Shown: positions 17,073-21,815 of the stretch, piece by piece
Numbering within the stretch: the stretch's first letter is position 1
How the letters are laid out: the number at the start of each line of letters is the position of its first letter
DNA from: Aphanocapsa sp. GSE-SYN-MK-11-07L
Lineage (GTDB): Bacteria > Cyanobacteriota > Cyanobacteriia > Thermosynechococcales > Thermosynechococcaceae
Assembly (NCBI GenBank): GCA_019359715.1
Contig: JAHHGS010000120.1
Location: 1-34,827 of the forward strand
Direction: 5' to 3'
DNA: 34,827 nt
The notes under the pieces: model-generated
What the model was told of the DNA's origin: nothing
What the model saw: only the letters and a program-made list of their open reading frames with translations
The model's database searches: none
Translations under genes and position numbers: made by a program

Positions 17073-17188
17073 AGAGGATTAAATGGAAAAAATCGTCAAA
17101 ATAGTAACTATCTTAACCTGCTATTGATAGATCAATATTAGTGTTTGGGAACCTTAATAGTGAATACATTCTTAATGAAGGAGGCAGT

Positions 17189-17644
17189 TTGGACAAAATT
17201 TTAATCTCTGAAGCCATACAGGGTGGAAACTGGTATGACTGTCAATATGAAAGGAATGATGAGCAAGTCCATTTCAAACTTCGCATTCTTGCGTTTCGGA
17301 AAACATCGGTTCAAGAAATTAAGCCAGATAGCGATGAGCATACAGAAGGTGTTTTATGGATCATGGAAATTGAGGTTGTTAGTCTAAATAAGCGTCCACT
17401 TGAAGCATATAAAGTTCGGCGTTCTATTGAGCTTGAGGATCATGAAGAGTTTGTGTTTGAGGTATTCACTGAAGGAAAACTCGATTCCGACGAAAAGAGT
17501 GGTCTTCATAGATTCTCAAGTTGGTCTTCAAATCCATCACTCTCTCCAAAAATTAAGGCTTGGGGGTCGATTCTCTTTAGACTCCCTGAAGAAGACGCTC
17601 AGTATTCTCTTGTAATTAAGAACGGAAGTGTGATAGCGGCTTAA
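17189..17644 (+). CDS. Orphan protein in AT-rich island
   Basis: About 151 aa from a TTG at 17189 that is preceded 4 nt upstream by a perfect AAGGAGG. A GTG at 17141 in the same frame has no ribosome-binding site. The sequence is acidic and strand-rich (VLWIMEIEVVSLNK, FVFEVFTEGK, WGSILFRLPEEDAQYS) with no signal peptide, membrane segment or motif I recognise. Base use is AT-richer than the neighbours and no HIP1 site is present, which fits transfer from elsewhere. It is the first of two such genes, followed by an attC-like structure 37 bp downstream. Confidence 0.6.
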   Translation: MDKILISEAIQGGNWYDCQYERNDEQVHFKLRILAFRKTSVQEIKPDSDEHTEGVLWIMEIEVVSLNKRPLEAYKVRRSIELEDHEEFVFEVFTEGKLDSDEKSGLHRFSSWSSNPSLSPKIKAWGSILFRLPEEDAQYSLVIKNGSVIAA

Positions 17645-17680
17645 CTTCGGATTCTGCCATAGAAGAAATAGCTATCACAT

Positions 17681-17771
17681 ACCTAGCAAGCGGCTGCACG
17701 GGAAACGGAAGTTTACCCTACTGCCTTGGTGCAGAGTGCATCTTCGTCCGGTGGGCTGCCAGCCGTTAGCT
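17681..17771 (+). other. attC-like imperfect inverted repeat
   Basis: The outer boxes are ACCTAGC at 17681-17687 and GTTAGCT at 17765-17771, each 6 of 7 to the integron consensus RYYYAAC and GTTRRRY. The inner boxes CGGCTG (17691-17696) and CAGCCG (17760-17765) pair perfectly, and further imperfect pairing extends inward. Total length (91 nt), position just after a stop codon and polarity fit an integron cassette attC site. No integrase gene is in the window. The call is by eye and not scored. Confidence 0.4.
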
Positions 17772-17801
17772 GTCTCATGTACTGGGTGTACTAGGGTGAA
17801 T

Positions 17802-18653
17802 ATGACTAACACGTATAACATTTTTAAAACAAATGGTATGGATGAAGTTTACTGCGATATTAAAAATGAAATAAACTCGAATTGTCAGGAATCCAAGATA
17901 TTTGTTGAACAGCTTTGGCGAAAGGCACATCAGTATCTTGACTCAGATATTCTGAAAGAGCTACCAGATCAATTTCACCAGCGTTTCTGGGAAATTTATT
18001 TAGCAGCATCGTTGCTTGAGGCAGGTTTAAATCTTCAACGTAGTAGTGGTCGAGATGGTTCAGACATTTGTATTAAAGCTAATGATGGATCAAAAATATG
18101 GGTAGAAGCTGTAACAGCATCACTAGGGCAAGGAAATGATGCCGTTCAAGAGACAGAAATTGGTGCTGTAAGATCTGTTCCCGACGACCAAATCAAACTT
18201 CGATTATTGAATGCATTTGCCGAGAAAAGTAGAAAATATAGATGCTACAGAGAGAAGAATTGGGTTGGTTCAGAAGAACCATATATTATTGCTATTAATG
18301 CGGCTCAAGTTCCTTCAGCAACGCGTGAGCTTGAAATTCCTAGAATTGTCAGATCTCTTTTACCCTTTGGATTTCAAGTTTTACATTTGAGTAGAGAGAC
18401 TTTGGAAGTGGCTGGAACCAGCTATGAGTATCAAGGAGAAGTTGTTAAAGCATCTGGCACAGAAATAGAAACCACTTCTTTTTTGAATCCTGAATATTCT
18501 GGAATAAGTGCTGTAATTTATTCATGTGTAGATGTTTTCAATTATCCAACTGAGATTAGTAAGGCACTCTTGTTATTTCATAATCCTCTGTCCGCGACTC
18601 CATTACCGTTAGCTTTCCTAAAAAACAGCCTTCGTGATAGAACACGTCCCTAG
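17802..18653 (+). CDS. Orphan protein with PD-(D/E)XK-like core
   Basis: A 283-aa protein starting at the ATG at 17802 (AGGGTG upstream). The region RFWEIYLAASLLEAGL (from 61) then GRDGSDICIKANDGSKIWVE (83-102) and AVTAS resembles a restriction-endonuclease-like core: Glu64 on the first helix, Asp88 on strand 2, and Glu102-Ala-Val104 where E-x-K would stand. Lys is missing, so catalytic activity is uncertain. No signal peptide or membrane helix is seen. AT-rich composition and absence of HIP1 sites mark it as imported. It lies between the attC-like site and the IS110 element. I do not know its function; a defence or DNA-processing role is speculation. Confidence 0.65.
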   Translation: MTNTYNIFKTNGMDEVYCDIKNEINSNCQESKIFVEQLWRKAHQYLDSDILKELPDQFHQRFWEIYLAASLLEAGLNLQRSSGRDGSDICIKANDGSKIWVEAVTASLGQGNDAVQETEIGAVRSVPDDQIKLRLLNAFAEKSRKYRCYREKNWVGSEEPYIIAINAAQVPSATRELEIPRIVRSLLPFGFQVLHLSRETLEVAGTSYEYQGEVVKASGTEIETTSFLNPEYSGISAVIYSCVDVFNYPTEISKALLLFHNPLSATPLPLAFLKNSLRDRTRP

Positions 18654-18659
18654 TGCTAG

Positions 18660-18671
18660 AAACAGTTGAGA
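18660..18671 (+). repeat. Left 12-bp direct repeat flanking the IS110 element
   Basis: AAACAGTTGAGA here is repeated exactly at 20298-20309 on the far side of the IS110 transposase gene. The spacing (1638 bp from copy to copy) is a plausible IS110 length. IS110 elements do not make classical target duplications but share a short core with the target, so a 12-bp match may mark the two junctions. Confidence 0.45.
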
Positions 18672-18847
18672 TTACACTTTCAATTACCGGACAGTGGCCG
18701 TCTGCCTTTTGGAGATATTACCCCGTCAAAAAACTTGGCCCAGGGAAAGCTGCGGACCCAATATTGGTGGCGTTTTAACGACCCCGTTTAGGAAAGTAAT
18801 TTTATCCGAGTTCCCGTCCGGCCTATTCACCTCATAGAAGGCTATCT
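18672..18847 (+). ncRNA. Possible bridge RNA region of the IS110 element
   Basis: Characterised IS110 elements such as IS621 encode a structured bridge RNA of about 177 nt in the left non-coding end, just before the recombinase gene, which pairs with target and donor DNA. The 176 nt here match in place and size. Visible structure includes the palindrome CCAATATTGG (18758-18767) and several G/C-rich complementary runs. I could not fold it or identify the two guide loops. Confidence 0.3.
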
Positions 18848-20197
18848 ATGTCAAATCAATCCAAACGAGCGGGATTACCTATAGTCCAAGAATATGCAGC
18901 GGGCATTGATATTGGATCTCGGTTTCATGTGGTTGCTGTGCCGCCTGAAATGAGTTCTGAATCAGTTCAAACTTTTCAGGCGTTTACGTCGGATCTGCAT
19001 CGGATGGCTGATTGGTTAATCGAGACAGGCATAAAAACGGTGGCGATGGAGTCAACAGGTGTTTACTGGGTACCCGTCTTTGAAATTCTTGAGGATCGGG
19101 GACTTAATGTGATTCTCGTTAATGCACGAGAGGCCCGCACCGTCCCTGGACGCAAAACGGATGTCAATGATGCTCAATGGTTACAGCGCTTACACGCCTG
19201 TGGGCTATTGCGTGCGAGTTTTCGTCCTGGTCGCGACATTGCTGCTCTACGGGCCTACTTGCGACTACGTGAGCGACATTTGGACTATGCCGCTGCTCAT
19301 ATTCAGCACATGCAAAAGGCGCTCACTTTCATGAATATGCAACTTCAGAATGTCGTCAGCGACATTACAGGTGCAACGGGAATGAAAATCATCCGAGCGA
19401 TTGTCGCCGGAGAACGTGACCCAGCCAAATTAGCACAGTTGCGTGATGTGCGATGTCACGCCAGTATTGAGACAATTGAAGCGTCGCTGCGGGGAAATGA
19501 CCAACCTGAGCATGTATTTGCACTAACTCAGGCTCTTGCACTCTATGACTTCTATCAAGCGCGAATTGAGGAATGCGACATAGAGATCGAGCGTGCATTG
19601 GCAGCATTGAACAAAGAAAAATCAGTACCTGAAGAGCCTTTGCCGAAGATTCGTCGTCAAACGCGGCAGCCAAATGCCGTTAATTTCCATGTTCGAGCGT
19701 CTCTTTATCAGCTCATTGGGGCAGACCTGACTCAGATTCATGGGATTGGTCCCTATCTGGCCCTACGATTAATTTCTGAATGTGGAACCGATCTGAGTCG
19801 GTGGCCTACGGTCAAGCATTTCACATCGTGGCTGAGGCTTTCTCCCGGCAGTAAAAAATCAGGCGGCAAAGTCCTTTCTGCTCATACGGGCAAGACCACT
19901 AACCGAGTGACCGCGCACTTGCGACTCGCAGCAGTGACGGTTGGACGTACCAACACTGCCTTGGGTGCTTTCTACCGACGTCTGGCCGCACGAATTGGGA
20001 AGTCAAAGGCAGTGACAGCCACAGCACGTAAGATTGCGGTGCTCTTCTATAATGCGGTTCGTTATGGCATGACCTATGTAGACCCTGGTGCAGATCGATA
20101 TGAGAAGGAATACCGCGAGCGTGTGGTCAAGAACCTGCATCGCAAAGCTGCCGAGTTCGGGTTTACCCTTCAGCCGACTGGGGATTGTGTTTCTTAG
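18848..20197 (+). CDS. IS110-family transposase (DEDD recombinase)
   Basis: A 449-aa full-length transposase. The RuvC-like N-terminal domain has Asp21 (AGIDIGS), Glu68 (AMESTGVYW) and Asp105/Asp108 (GRKTDVNDAQWL). A helical linker follows, then the C-terminal Tnp domain with helix-hairpin-helix IHGIGPYLALRLISECG and the catalytic Ser338 in PGSKKSGGKV. All expected catalytic residues are present, so it may be active. It works as a recombinase guided by a bridge RNA in studied members. GAAGG ahead of the ATG is the likely ribosome-binding site; the same GAAGGCTAT string recurs right after the stop codon (20198-20206). Confidence 0.95.
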   Translation: MSNQSKRAGLPIVQEYAAGIDIGSRFHVVAVPPEMSSESVQTFQAFTSDLHRMADWLIETGIKTVAMESTGVYWVPVFEILEDRGLNVILVNAREARTVPGRKTDVNDAQWLQRLHACGLLRASFRPGRDIAALRAYLRLRERHLDYAAAHIQHMQKALTFMNMQLQNVVSDITGATGMKIIRAIVAGERDPAKLAQLRDVRCHASIETIEASLRGNDQPEHVFALTQALALYDFYQARIEECDIEIERALAALNKEKSVPEEPLPKIRRQTRQPNAVNFHVRASLYQLIGADLTQIHGIGPYLALRLISECGTDLSRWPTVKHFTSWLRLSPGSKKSGGKVLSAHTGKTTNRVTAHLRLAAVTVGRTNTALGAFYRRLAARIGKSKAVTATARKIAVLFYNAVRYGMTYVDPGADRYEKEYRERVVKNLHRKAAEFGFTLQPTGDCVS

Positions 20198-20403
20198 GAA
20201 GGCTATGAATATTGGGTGGATGAACACCTCAAAAGCAGAAATTGGAATCAAGAAAAATAGTCGATGTGATATCCGACAGCTAACAAGTTGATGAAGTAAA
20301 CAGTTGAGAGATCTTGGTGGGGGGTCGCTAAGGTTTTCTGCCATTACTTATCTTGGTCGTCATGTGGCGACTAGACCACAGTGTCAAATTAGTGGTTGGG
20401 TGT

Positions 20404-20691
20404 TTAGAGGGTGTTTGAAAAGTGTCTTGGGCGACGTTGCCACCGTGCAGATCCCCCCAACCCCCTTTTTTAAGATAGGGCTGATTCTCTTAGAAGAGCA
20501 AAGTTGCCTTAATCTGTTCAGGAGGTTCGCGTTTGAAGCCTAAACTCTTCGATCCCCCAACCCCCTTAAAAAGGGGGCTTCAGACTTCAAAATCCCCCTT
20601 TTTAAGGGGGATTTAGGGGGATCAAGGATTTTCAGATGTGTCCAATTTGACTTTTCAAACATCCTCTTAAGTTTTCAAACATCCTCTTAAG
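20404..20691. mobile_element. MITE-like palindromic element, composite copy
   Basis: Terminal inverted repeats are AGAGGGTGTTTGAAAAGT at the left (from 20406) and the complementary ACTTTTCAAACATCCTCT at the right (from 20650). The interior has large palindromes built from GATCCCCC, CCCCCTTTTTAAGGGGG and their complements (20450-20475 and 20551-20625), with a unique spacer of about 75 bp between them, which suggests one copy inserted in another. The right terminal 20 bp is duplicated head-to-tail (20652-20671 and 20672-20691). There is no transposase gene. Two relatives lie at 30528-30671 and 33102-33183. Confidence 0.75.
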
Positions 20692-21310: not shown

Positions 21311-21574
21311 ATGGAAATCATTCCAGCCAGTCAGGCCAGAGCCAAGTTATTTGGCTTAGTGGAACAGGTGAATTGCGACCACCTACCTCGGCTGATCACC
21401 AGTCGAAACGGAGATGCCGTATTACTCTCCAAGCAGGATTGGGAGAGTTTACAGGAAACCCTCTATTTGCAATCAGTCCCTGATTTGGTTTCATCAGTTC
21501 GAGCCGCTGAAGCAGCGGATGAATGGGTAACTGAAGCGGAGTTTTTGAGGGTGCTGGATGGACTGGAAGATTGA
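21311..21574 (+). CDS. Type II antitoxin, Phd/YefM family
   Basis: An 87-aa protein with the YefM/Phd N-terminal DNA-binding and dimerisation domain (MEIIPASQARAKLFGLVEQV, then PRLITSRNGDAVLLSKQDWE) and an acidic C-terminal tail that wraps the toxin. It would neutralise the YoeB-like toxin encoded next and repress its own operon through the palindrome upstream. AGG precedes the ATG, with no strong Shine-Dalgarno. Its last 17 bp overlap the toxin gene, a usual sign of translational coupling. Confidence 0.92.
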   Translation: MEIIPASQARAKLFGLVEQVNCDHLPRLITSRNGDAVLLSKQDWESLQETLYLQSVPDLVSSVRAAEAADEWVTEAEFLRVLDGLED

Positions 21575-21815
21575 ATTCAGCAAAAATGCCTTAAAAGATG
21601 CCGCCAAGCTGAAATCTGCCAACCTGGATCAAAATGTGAAGCAATTGCTAGCCGTTCTAAAGCAAAACCCGTTTGAGCCTCCCTCCGAAAAACTGAGCGG
21701 CAATTTGCAAGGCTACTATTCGCGCCGGATCAACATCAAACATCGGCTGGTATATGCAGTTGATCAAGCCACTCAAACCATTCGGGTTGTGTCTGTTTGG
21801 TCGCATTATGAGTAG
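21558..21815 (+). CDS. Type II toxin, YoeB/Txe family mRNA interferase
   Basis: An 85-aa RelE-fold toxin close to the length of E. coli YoeB (84). Conserved features are MDWKIEFSKNALKDAAKL, PFEPPSEKLSGNLQGYYSRR, then HRLVYAV at 62-68 and the C-terminal WSHY at 81-84. His83 falls at the position of the YoeB catalytic His, and Arg63 and Glu44 are candidates for the other catalytic residues. YoeB cuts mRNA in the ribosomal A site. All key residues appear present, so the toxin is probably functional. Confidence 0.93.
   Translation: MDWKIEFSKNALKDAAKLKSANLDQNVKQLLAVLKQNPFEPPSEKLSGNLQGYYSRRINIKHRLVYAVDQATQTIRVVSVWSHYE

What the first reader, a model, noticed from the sequence alone, without database searches (positions are those of the whole stretch)
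17681..20284. Possible integron-cassette remnant: attC-like site and matching far boundary
The structure at 17681-17771 has attC-type outer boxes (each one base off consensus) and perfectly pairing inner boxes. Integration theory predicts that a cassette starts with the half box TTAGCT (here 17766-17771) and ends with its complement AGCTAAC; this exact string, followed by AAGTTGATGAAG as in many attC sites, occurs at 20278-20284. The nuclease-like gene would be the cassette cargo, later hit by IS110. Some IS110/IS1111 relatives are known to target attC sites. Against it: no integrase in the window and no clear right half of the second site.
Basis: partly seen in the sequence, partly recalled or inferred. 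Interest (0 to 1): 0.7.

Follow-up and report, generated by a model that had tools for sequence, protein, structure and literature searches.

The report
Decayed integron cassette with nuclease gene
A cyanobacterium carries an old, worn integron gene cassette that held a probable anti-phage nuclease gene, later broken by an inserted jumping gene, in a genome that turns out to hold dozens of such cassette sites scattered around it.

Summary
The far boundary (20278) is not a lone half-site: a complete, decayed attC lies at 20278-20365. It scores 41.6 bits (E 1.2e-8) and 43.0 bits (E 8e-11) with two attC models built without the window. Its inner boxes pair 9/9 with one extra G. The near site (17681-17771) is weaker, 15.3 bits (E 0.038) with the better model, second in the window. 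Its right edge TTAGCT (17766) is independently confirmed as a cassette start. A 69% relative of the cargo in filamentous cyanobacterium LEGE 07170 begins with the same TTAGCTGTCTCAT after unrelated DNA, and a 78% relative in a Lake Pavin MAG ends with its own attC starting AGCTAAC. The genome has four IntI genes over the family cut-off (one broken) and about 35 attC sites. The cargo is a PD-T7-5-like, probable PD-(D/E)XK nuclease gene, broken near its 3' end by IS110 (about 18613-20201), which did not hit an attC. The far R' box (GTCATGT) lacks GTT, so excision is probably lost. Cyanobacterial integrons are already known; this is a new, fossil member.

The parts
17141..17644 (+). 167-aa orphan ORF, possible cargo of the preceding cassette (its own left end not found)
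   Evidence: No Pfam family at E<=0.001 and only a non-significant NCBIfam hit; only the own genome matches among 145 relatives and among 388 class genomes; none in plasmids. GC about 0.40 against 0.44-0.55 for most of the window.
17681..17771 (+). near site: probable decayed attC (R'' 17681-17687, R' 17765-17771)
   Evidence: 15.3 bits, E 0.038, full length with R2; 10.0 bits, E 2.1 with R1; resembles attCs L059:1091-1179 and L054:14024-14114.
17766..20365 (+). integron cassette including the later IS110 (TTAGCT ... attC); about 1.0 kb without the IS
   Evidence: Start and end boxes AGCTAAC/GTTAGCT complementary 7/7; start shared with L100, attC position shared with L101.
17802..18616 (+). 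5' part of the PD-T7-5-like gene (ATG 17802); right edge approximate
   Evidence: PADLOC PD-T7-5 E 6.3e-23; 77% identity to the L101 protein.
18613..20201 (+). IS110 element, ends approximate to about 10 bases
   Evidence: Left end shared with L104, right end shared with L103.
18848..20197 (+). IS110 transposase, 449 aa
   Evidence: NF033542 E 7.8e-71, 239 bits against cut-off 140; PF01548 and PF02371.
20201..20260 (+). 3' end of the interrupted gene (...GYEYWVDEHLKSRNWNQEK, stop TAG 20258-20260)
   Evidence: Aligns with the L101 C-terminus ...KKGHEYWVEQYLKNKNWNQEQSV.
20278..20365 (+). far site: attC of the cassette (R'' 20278-20284, L'' 20290-20299, L' 20344-20352, R' 20359-20365 degenerate)
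   Evidence: 41.6 bits E 1.2e-8, 43.0 bits E 8.2e-11; 75% identity over 79 bases to attC C53:2875 of the same genome.

Best explanation
17766-20365 is an integron gene cassette that was inserted by an integron integrase behind another, probably also cassette-borne, gene. Inferred mechanism: the circular cassette, with its attC folded as a single-stranded bottom-strand hairpin, was joined by IntI at the GTT of the R' box of the near site, leaving the order near attC (17681-17771), cargo gene, own attC (20278-20365). The cargo is a small stand-alone PD-T7-5-like, probable PD-(D/E)XK nuclease, likely an anti-phage gene. Afterwards an IS110 element inserted near the 3' end of the gene and cut off about the last 19 residues, and both attC sites decayed: the far R' box is GTCATGT and its hairpin is weak, the near R'' box is ACCTAGC. 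The cassette is therefore probably a fixed remnant. No integrase lies in the window; IntI enzymes encoded elsewhere in the genome could have acted in trans. Shown by sequence: attC match of the far site, both cassette edges, IS position, IntI and other attCs in the genome. Inferred: the act of recombination, present inactivity, anti-phage role.
For: Far site 41.6 and 43.0 bits with models that exclude the window. Cassette closing rule 7/7 between AGCTAAC (20278) and GTTAGCT (17765). L100: the homologous gene begins TTAGCTGTCTCAT after unrelated DNA, identity to the window starting at the predicted base. L101: the homologous gene is followed 8 bases after its stop by an attC with R'' AGCTAAC, 47.2 bits, and a further attC of 72.9 bits lies on the same contig. 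Four IntI genes over the cut-off in the genome; 35 of 41 listed R2 matches have E<0.02. Cargo layout is typical: 36 bases from TTAGCT to ATG, 17 bases from stop to R'' (sequence). PADLOC PD-T7-5 E 6.3e-23 and 1.1e-24 for the L101 protein.
Against: Far site: the folded strand is weak (-1.67 kcal/mol, z +1.37), R'' and R' pair only 4 of 7, and R' lacks the GTT. No intI or attI in the window. The start of the preceding cassette was not found. More distant relatives of the cargo gene (L065-L068, 36-49%) have no convincing attC, so this gene family is not confined to cassettes. In L101 the TTAGCT start is not directly before the gene.
Confidence: 0.9

Rival explanations
1. Only the far site is an attC; the stretch 17681-17765 is ordinary DNA, and the cassette was inserted at a non-attC (attG-like) G^TT site, as its relative was in LEGE 07170.
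For: Near site E 2.1 (R1), 0.038 (R2), fold z -0.37. In L100 the same cassette start follows a gene end with no attC reported there.
Against: R2 score above everything else in the window except the far site and above 86 kb of control; full-length match ending at the cassette start, with R'', both L boxes and spacers in attC order; resemblance to attCs L059:1091-1179 and L054:14024-14114; an orphan low-GC ORF ends 36 bases before it.
Confidence: 0.2
2. The structure is a transcribed RNA element or terminator between two genes, not a recombination site.
For: It lies between two co-directional genes and can fold as RNA (-36.7 kcal/mol).
Against: RNA fold z -0.77; no Rfam match at E<=1 in 17600-20500; the far site matches attC models at E 1e-8 or better.
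Confidence: 0.03
3. A defence-gene insertion by another route (transposition or homologous recombination), with attC boxes by chance.
For: No integrase in the window; IS110 is present; distant homologs show no convincing attC.
Against: Both edges coincide with attC/cassette-start boxes in two other cyanobacteria.
Confidence: 0.03

Closest known systems
Sedentary chromosomal integron cassettes of Cyanobacteria
   Same: attC sites of 84-90 bases with R and L boxes and an extra base; IntI in the genome. Cyanobacterial attCs have a published covariance model (PMC8352920, passage seen), and Cyanobacteria are listed among integron phyla (PMC8618304, PMC2426708, passages seen).
   Different: No intI or attI beside it; both attC sites decayed; the cargo is broken by an IS.
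[quoted passage not shown]
   Same: attC sites with no neighbouring intI; definitions seen in PMC12690207 (passage).
   Different: Two sites about 2.5 kb apart, one of them degenerate; IntegronFinder itself was not run.
attG-type insertion of cassettes outside integrons (Loot et al. 2024)
   Same: The relative in LEGE 07170 sits behind a chromosomal gene with no attC before it. The source paper was not read; its claim was seen as cited in PMC12901181 (passage).
   Different: In the window the cassette follows a probable attC.
Defence-gene cassettes of Vibrio integrons (Darracq 2025, Getz 2025)
   Same: A small single-gene defence-like cargo in a cassette; seen as reviewed in PMC12409362 (passages).
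   Different: A cyanobacterium; no activity shown; the gene is broken here.
IS1111-attC elements (ISKpn4, ISPst6)
   Same: Same transposase superfamily near attC sites (PMC11187229, passages).
   Different: This is an IS110-type element with a long non-coding stretch before the transposase gene, inserted in the gene, not in an attC.

Membership tests
Integron gene cassette | attC at the 3' end of the cargo, full R''-L''-L'-R' order | tested here: met
   20278-20365, 41.6 bits E 1.2e-8, 43.0 bits E 8.2e-11.
Integron gene cassette | L boxes complementary with one unpaired extra base | tested here: met
   Far site 9/9 with extra G; near site 10 + 2 G.T of 13 with extra G.
Integron gene cassette | Cassette start TTRRRY complementary to its own R'' | tested here: met
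   GTTAGCT against AGCTAAC 7/7; start shared with L100.
Integron gene cassette, mobile today | Intact cleavage triplet GTT in R' of the flanking sites | tested here: not met
   Near site GTTAGCT intact; far site GTCATGT lacks GTT. This lowers 'mobile cassette', not 'cassette by origin'.
Integron gene cassette | Integron integrase in the genome | tested here: met
   Four IntI genes over the TIGR02249 cut-off, three full length.
Complete integron | intI and attI beside the cassettes | tested here: not met
   None of the 8 IntI matches of the genome lies on the window's contig C120.
Integron gene cassette | Excision or integration by IntI | not testable with these tools
   Needs a recombination assay.
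PD-T7-5 defence protein | Match to the family profile | tested here: met
   E 6.3e-23, residues 39-268 on profile 13-238/346. PD-(D/E)XK nuclease is given as the PD-T7-5 domain in PMC10952713 (passage); the motif GPD...WVEAV was read by eye in the L101 protein (the window has GSD...WVEAV).
PD-T7-5 defence protein | Anti-phage activity | not testable with these tools
   The gene is broken in the window.
IS110 family | DEDD plus Transposase_20 transposase, long non-coding stretch before it | tested here: met
   NF033542 239 bits; about 230 bases before the gene, conserved in L103 and L104.
IS1111-attC group | Insertion at an attC | tested here: not met
   IS lies inside the cargo gene; no attC at E<=1 in L103-L105.

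The most novel reading that the evidence does not exclude
In cyanobacteria, integron cassettes live mainly as single sites or small clusters dispersed over the chromosome, inserted by a few IntI enzymes acting in trans (attG-like insertion), rather than in one array; this window is one decayed example, and nuclease or defence genes are frequent cargo.
Probability: 0.5. Interest if true: 0.65.

Novelty: new member of a known kind. Interest (0 to 1): 0.42.

Why it matters
It confirms a cassette first suspected from raw sequence and orders the events (insertion, then IS110 hit, with attC decay). More broadly, the attC model made here finds sites at E<=0.001 in 48 of 58 genomes (own one included), from 1 to 76 each, among them genomes such as G002 with 42 sites and no IntI match at E<=1e-60. 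Dispersed cassettes may thus be a large, little-described share of cyanobacterial gene gain, possibly including phage defence.

Tried and rejected
An in-house R/L-box scorer was useful to find seed attCs but too permissive: it gave scores of 11-13 to many unrelated stretches, and the near site scored only 9.3, so it was not used as proof. Single-strand folding did not separate the near site from shuffles, and the far site folds worse than most shuffles. Empty-site search: sfsA was found in 28 of 29 family genomes, but none of the 11 other loci examined keeps the window's other neighbours within the flanks held, so no empty site could be defined. The 167-aa gene gave no homologs. A scan of viral contigs with the cargo protein gave nothing; plasmid relatives are below 34% identity and were not followed. 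A 48-base stretch at 18625-18672 was first taken as a puzzle between gene and IS; L104 shows that it belongs to the IS left end. An early note gave the gene's last residues in the wrong frame; one search corrects it. A third RNA model of the near-site subfamily was considered and not built, because its members would have been chosen for likeness to the site.

Full report
Setting. The window is contig C120 of a 5.1 Mb genome in 159 contigs. Neighbouring genes include magnesium-protoporphyrin methyltransferase and sfsA, and the two named records with close relatives of the cargo are cyanobacteria, so the host is taken to be a cyanobacterium.

The observation. 17681-17687 ACCTAGC and 17765-17771 GTTAGCT are each one base off consensus, and AGCTAAC at 20278 occurs once on the + strand of the window. 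The near site's inner boxes are not perfectly complementary (10 Watson-Crick and 2 G.T of 13).

Is there integron machinery? Yes. TIGR02249, the integron integrase model, is passed by four places in the genome (C60, C21, C82 and a broken one on C99). None is on C120. Of 145 genomes searched (own one included), 48 have a match at E<=1e-60 and 44 pass the cut-off.

An attC model without the window. IntI-bearing contigs of the genome and of relatives were scanned for R/L-box structures. Seventeen clear attCs were aligned (A1) and made into covariance model R1. In the window with filters off, R1's best match is 20278-20365, full length, 41.6 bits, E 1.2e-8; 17681-17771 is third of 8, full length but 10.0 bits, E 2.1. 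R1 finds 34 matches at E<=10 in the whole genome, 30 of them with E<0.02. A second model, R2, from 71 rows (64 distinct) of the genome and relatives with the window left out, gives 43.0 bits, E 8.2e-11 for the far site and 15.3 bits, E 0.038 for the near site, now first and second of 8; the third has 9.3 bits. A control of 86,265 bases from the same genome without known attCs has a best score of 11.5. R2 lists 41 matches at E<=10 in the genome, 35 of them below 0.02; most of these sites were in its training set, and the near site is not in this list.

The far site in detail. R'' AGCTAAC, L'' GAT[G]AAGTAA, L' TTACTTATC, R' GTCATGT. L boxes pair 9/9 with one extra G; R boxes pair 4 of 7. Its closest relative among the loci held is the attC at C53:2875 of the same genome, 75% over 79 bases. 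The single strand folds weakly (-1.67 kcal/mol, 191 of 200 shuffles fold at least as well), whereas C53:2875 folds at -12.7 and -10.7 on its two strands. So it is an attC by descent but probably a poor substrate.

The cassette edges. A scan of genome contigs with the cargo protein found two relatives. In L100 (filamentous cyanobacterium LEGE 07170) the gene, which has an internal stop, follows the end of an S1-like gene (read by eye), and identity to the window begins exactly with TTAGCTGTCTCAT. A faint attC-like match (12.2 bits, E 0.26) lies just after the gene. In L101 (Lake Pavin cyanobacterial MAG) the gene stops 8 bases before an attC with R'' AGCTAAC (47.2 bits), and another attC (72.9 bits) lies upstream. 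In L101 the TTAGCT start is not directly before the gene. Together with the 7/7 match between the window's start and end boxes this fixes 17766 and 20278 as cassette edges. The start codon is 36 bases after the start of TTAGCT and the stop 17 bases before R''.

The near site. Beyond the R2 score it resembles attCs L059:1091-1179 and L054:14024-14114, which R1 had found independently at 22.9 and 19.0 bits. A fixed-end test that ignores R' finds 8 of 778 null stretches scoring at least as high. I take it as a decayed attC (about 0.75), the end of a cassette carrying the orphan 167-aa gene; that gene has a match only in the own genome among 145 and among 388 genomes and none in plasmids. The left end of that first cassette was not found.

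The cargo and the IS. The gene (ATG 17802) matches PADLOC PD-T7-5 (E 6.3e-23), a family reported to hold a PD-(D/E)XK nuclease domain (PMC10952713, passage). Five of 145 genomes, the own one included, have a relative; the four others (L065-L068) show no convincing attC (the 17.3-bit match in L067 and the 12.5-bit match in L066 lie inside the matched gene region). IS110 interrupts the gene after ...FLK; the remaining 3' end, GYEYWVDEHLKSRNWNQEK and stop, follows its right end. Its ends are placed by L104 and L103. It is the only copy in the genome at E<=0.001. It did not hit an attC, and no attC lies near its relatives.

Other cassettes of the genome. For 28 attC sites the upstream ORFs were listed; for 19 of these 28 a same-strand ORF was taken, and in 18 of 19 its stop lies between 30 bases inside and 111 bases before the site. 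Of nine such ORFs scanned with PADLOC, five match something at E<=0.001 (type IIG-like, HNH/PtuB-like, a MerR-like regulator, a nucleotidyltransferase, an HTH protein). Several of these are generic domains, so this is a hint, not a count of defence systems.

Wider pattern. R2 finds attCs at E<=0.001 in 48 of 58 genomes. At most 77 candidates per genome were scored, so high counts are lower bounds. Listed positions fall on many contigs and, in closed genomes such as G018, far apart. This is the most novel reading and needs closed genomes to settle.

Novelty. Cyanobacterial integrons and attCs are in print (PMC8352920, PMC8618304, PMC2426708; passages). Searches for cyanobacterial integron papers listed none whose title or shown abstract is about dispersed cyanobacterial cassettes; that covers only the held open-licence library.

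Noticed in passing
L001, L030, L035, L036, L041, L043 (upstream of intI); L013:9083-9340: Tandem palindromic repeats (TTAGRYGGA..TCCRYCTAA cores) about 120-330 bases upstream of intI in 6 of 32 IntI loci by a simple pattern; candidate attI or IntI-binding arrays.
   Followed up: partly
own genome and relatives: attC sites scattered over many contigs, 48 of 58 genomes with at least one at E<=0.001.
   Followed up: partly
L017:249-2245 (C33): An attC, then a gene that reads as prolyl-tRNA synthetase (by eye), then a truncated attC and an IntI fragment: a housekeeping-type gene as possible cassette cargo.
   Followed up: no
window 21311-21815: Two small overlapping ORFs that look like a YefM/YoeB-type toxin-antitoxin pair (by eye).
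   Followed up: no
L100:3960-5000: Related cassette inserted directly behind an S1-like gene with no attC before it: a natural attG-like insertion, with the cargo broken by a stop.
   Followed up: partly
L013:151-1551: CRISPR-like array of about 23 repeat copies at 61-63 base spacing, on the same contig as an intact IntI gene.
   Followed up: no
C21 and C82 contig ends (L014, L015): Two similar IntI genes next to the same end sequence at contig ends, suggesting a duplicated intI segment or an assembly repeat.
   Followed up: no
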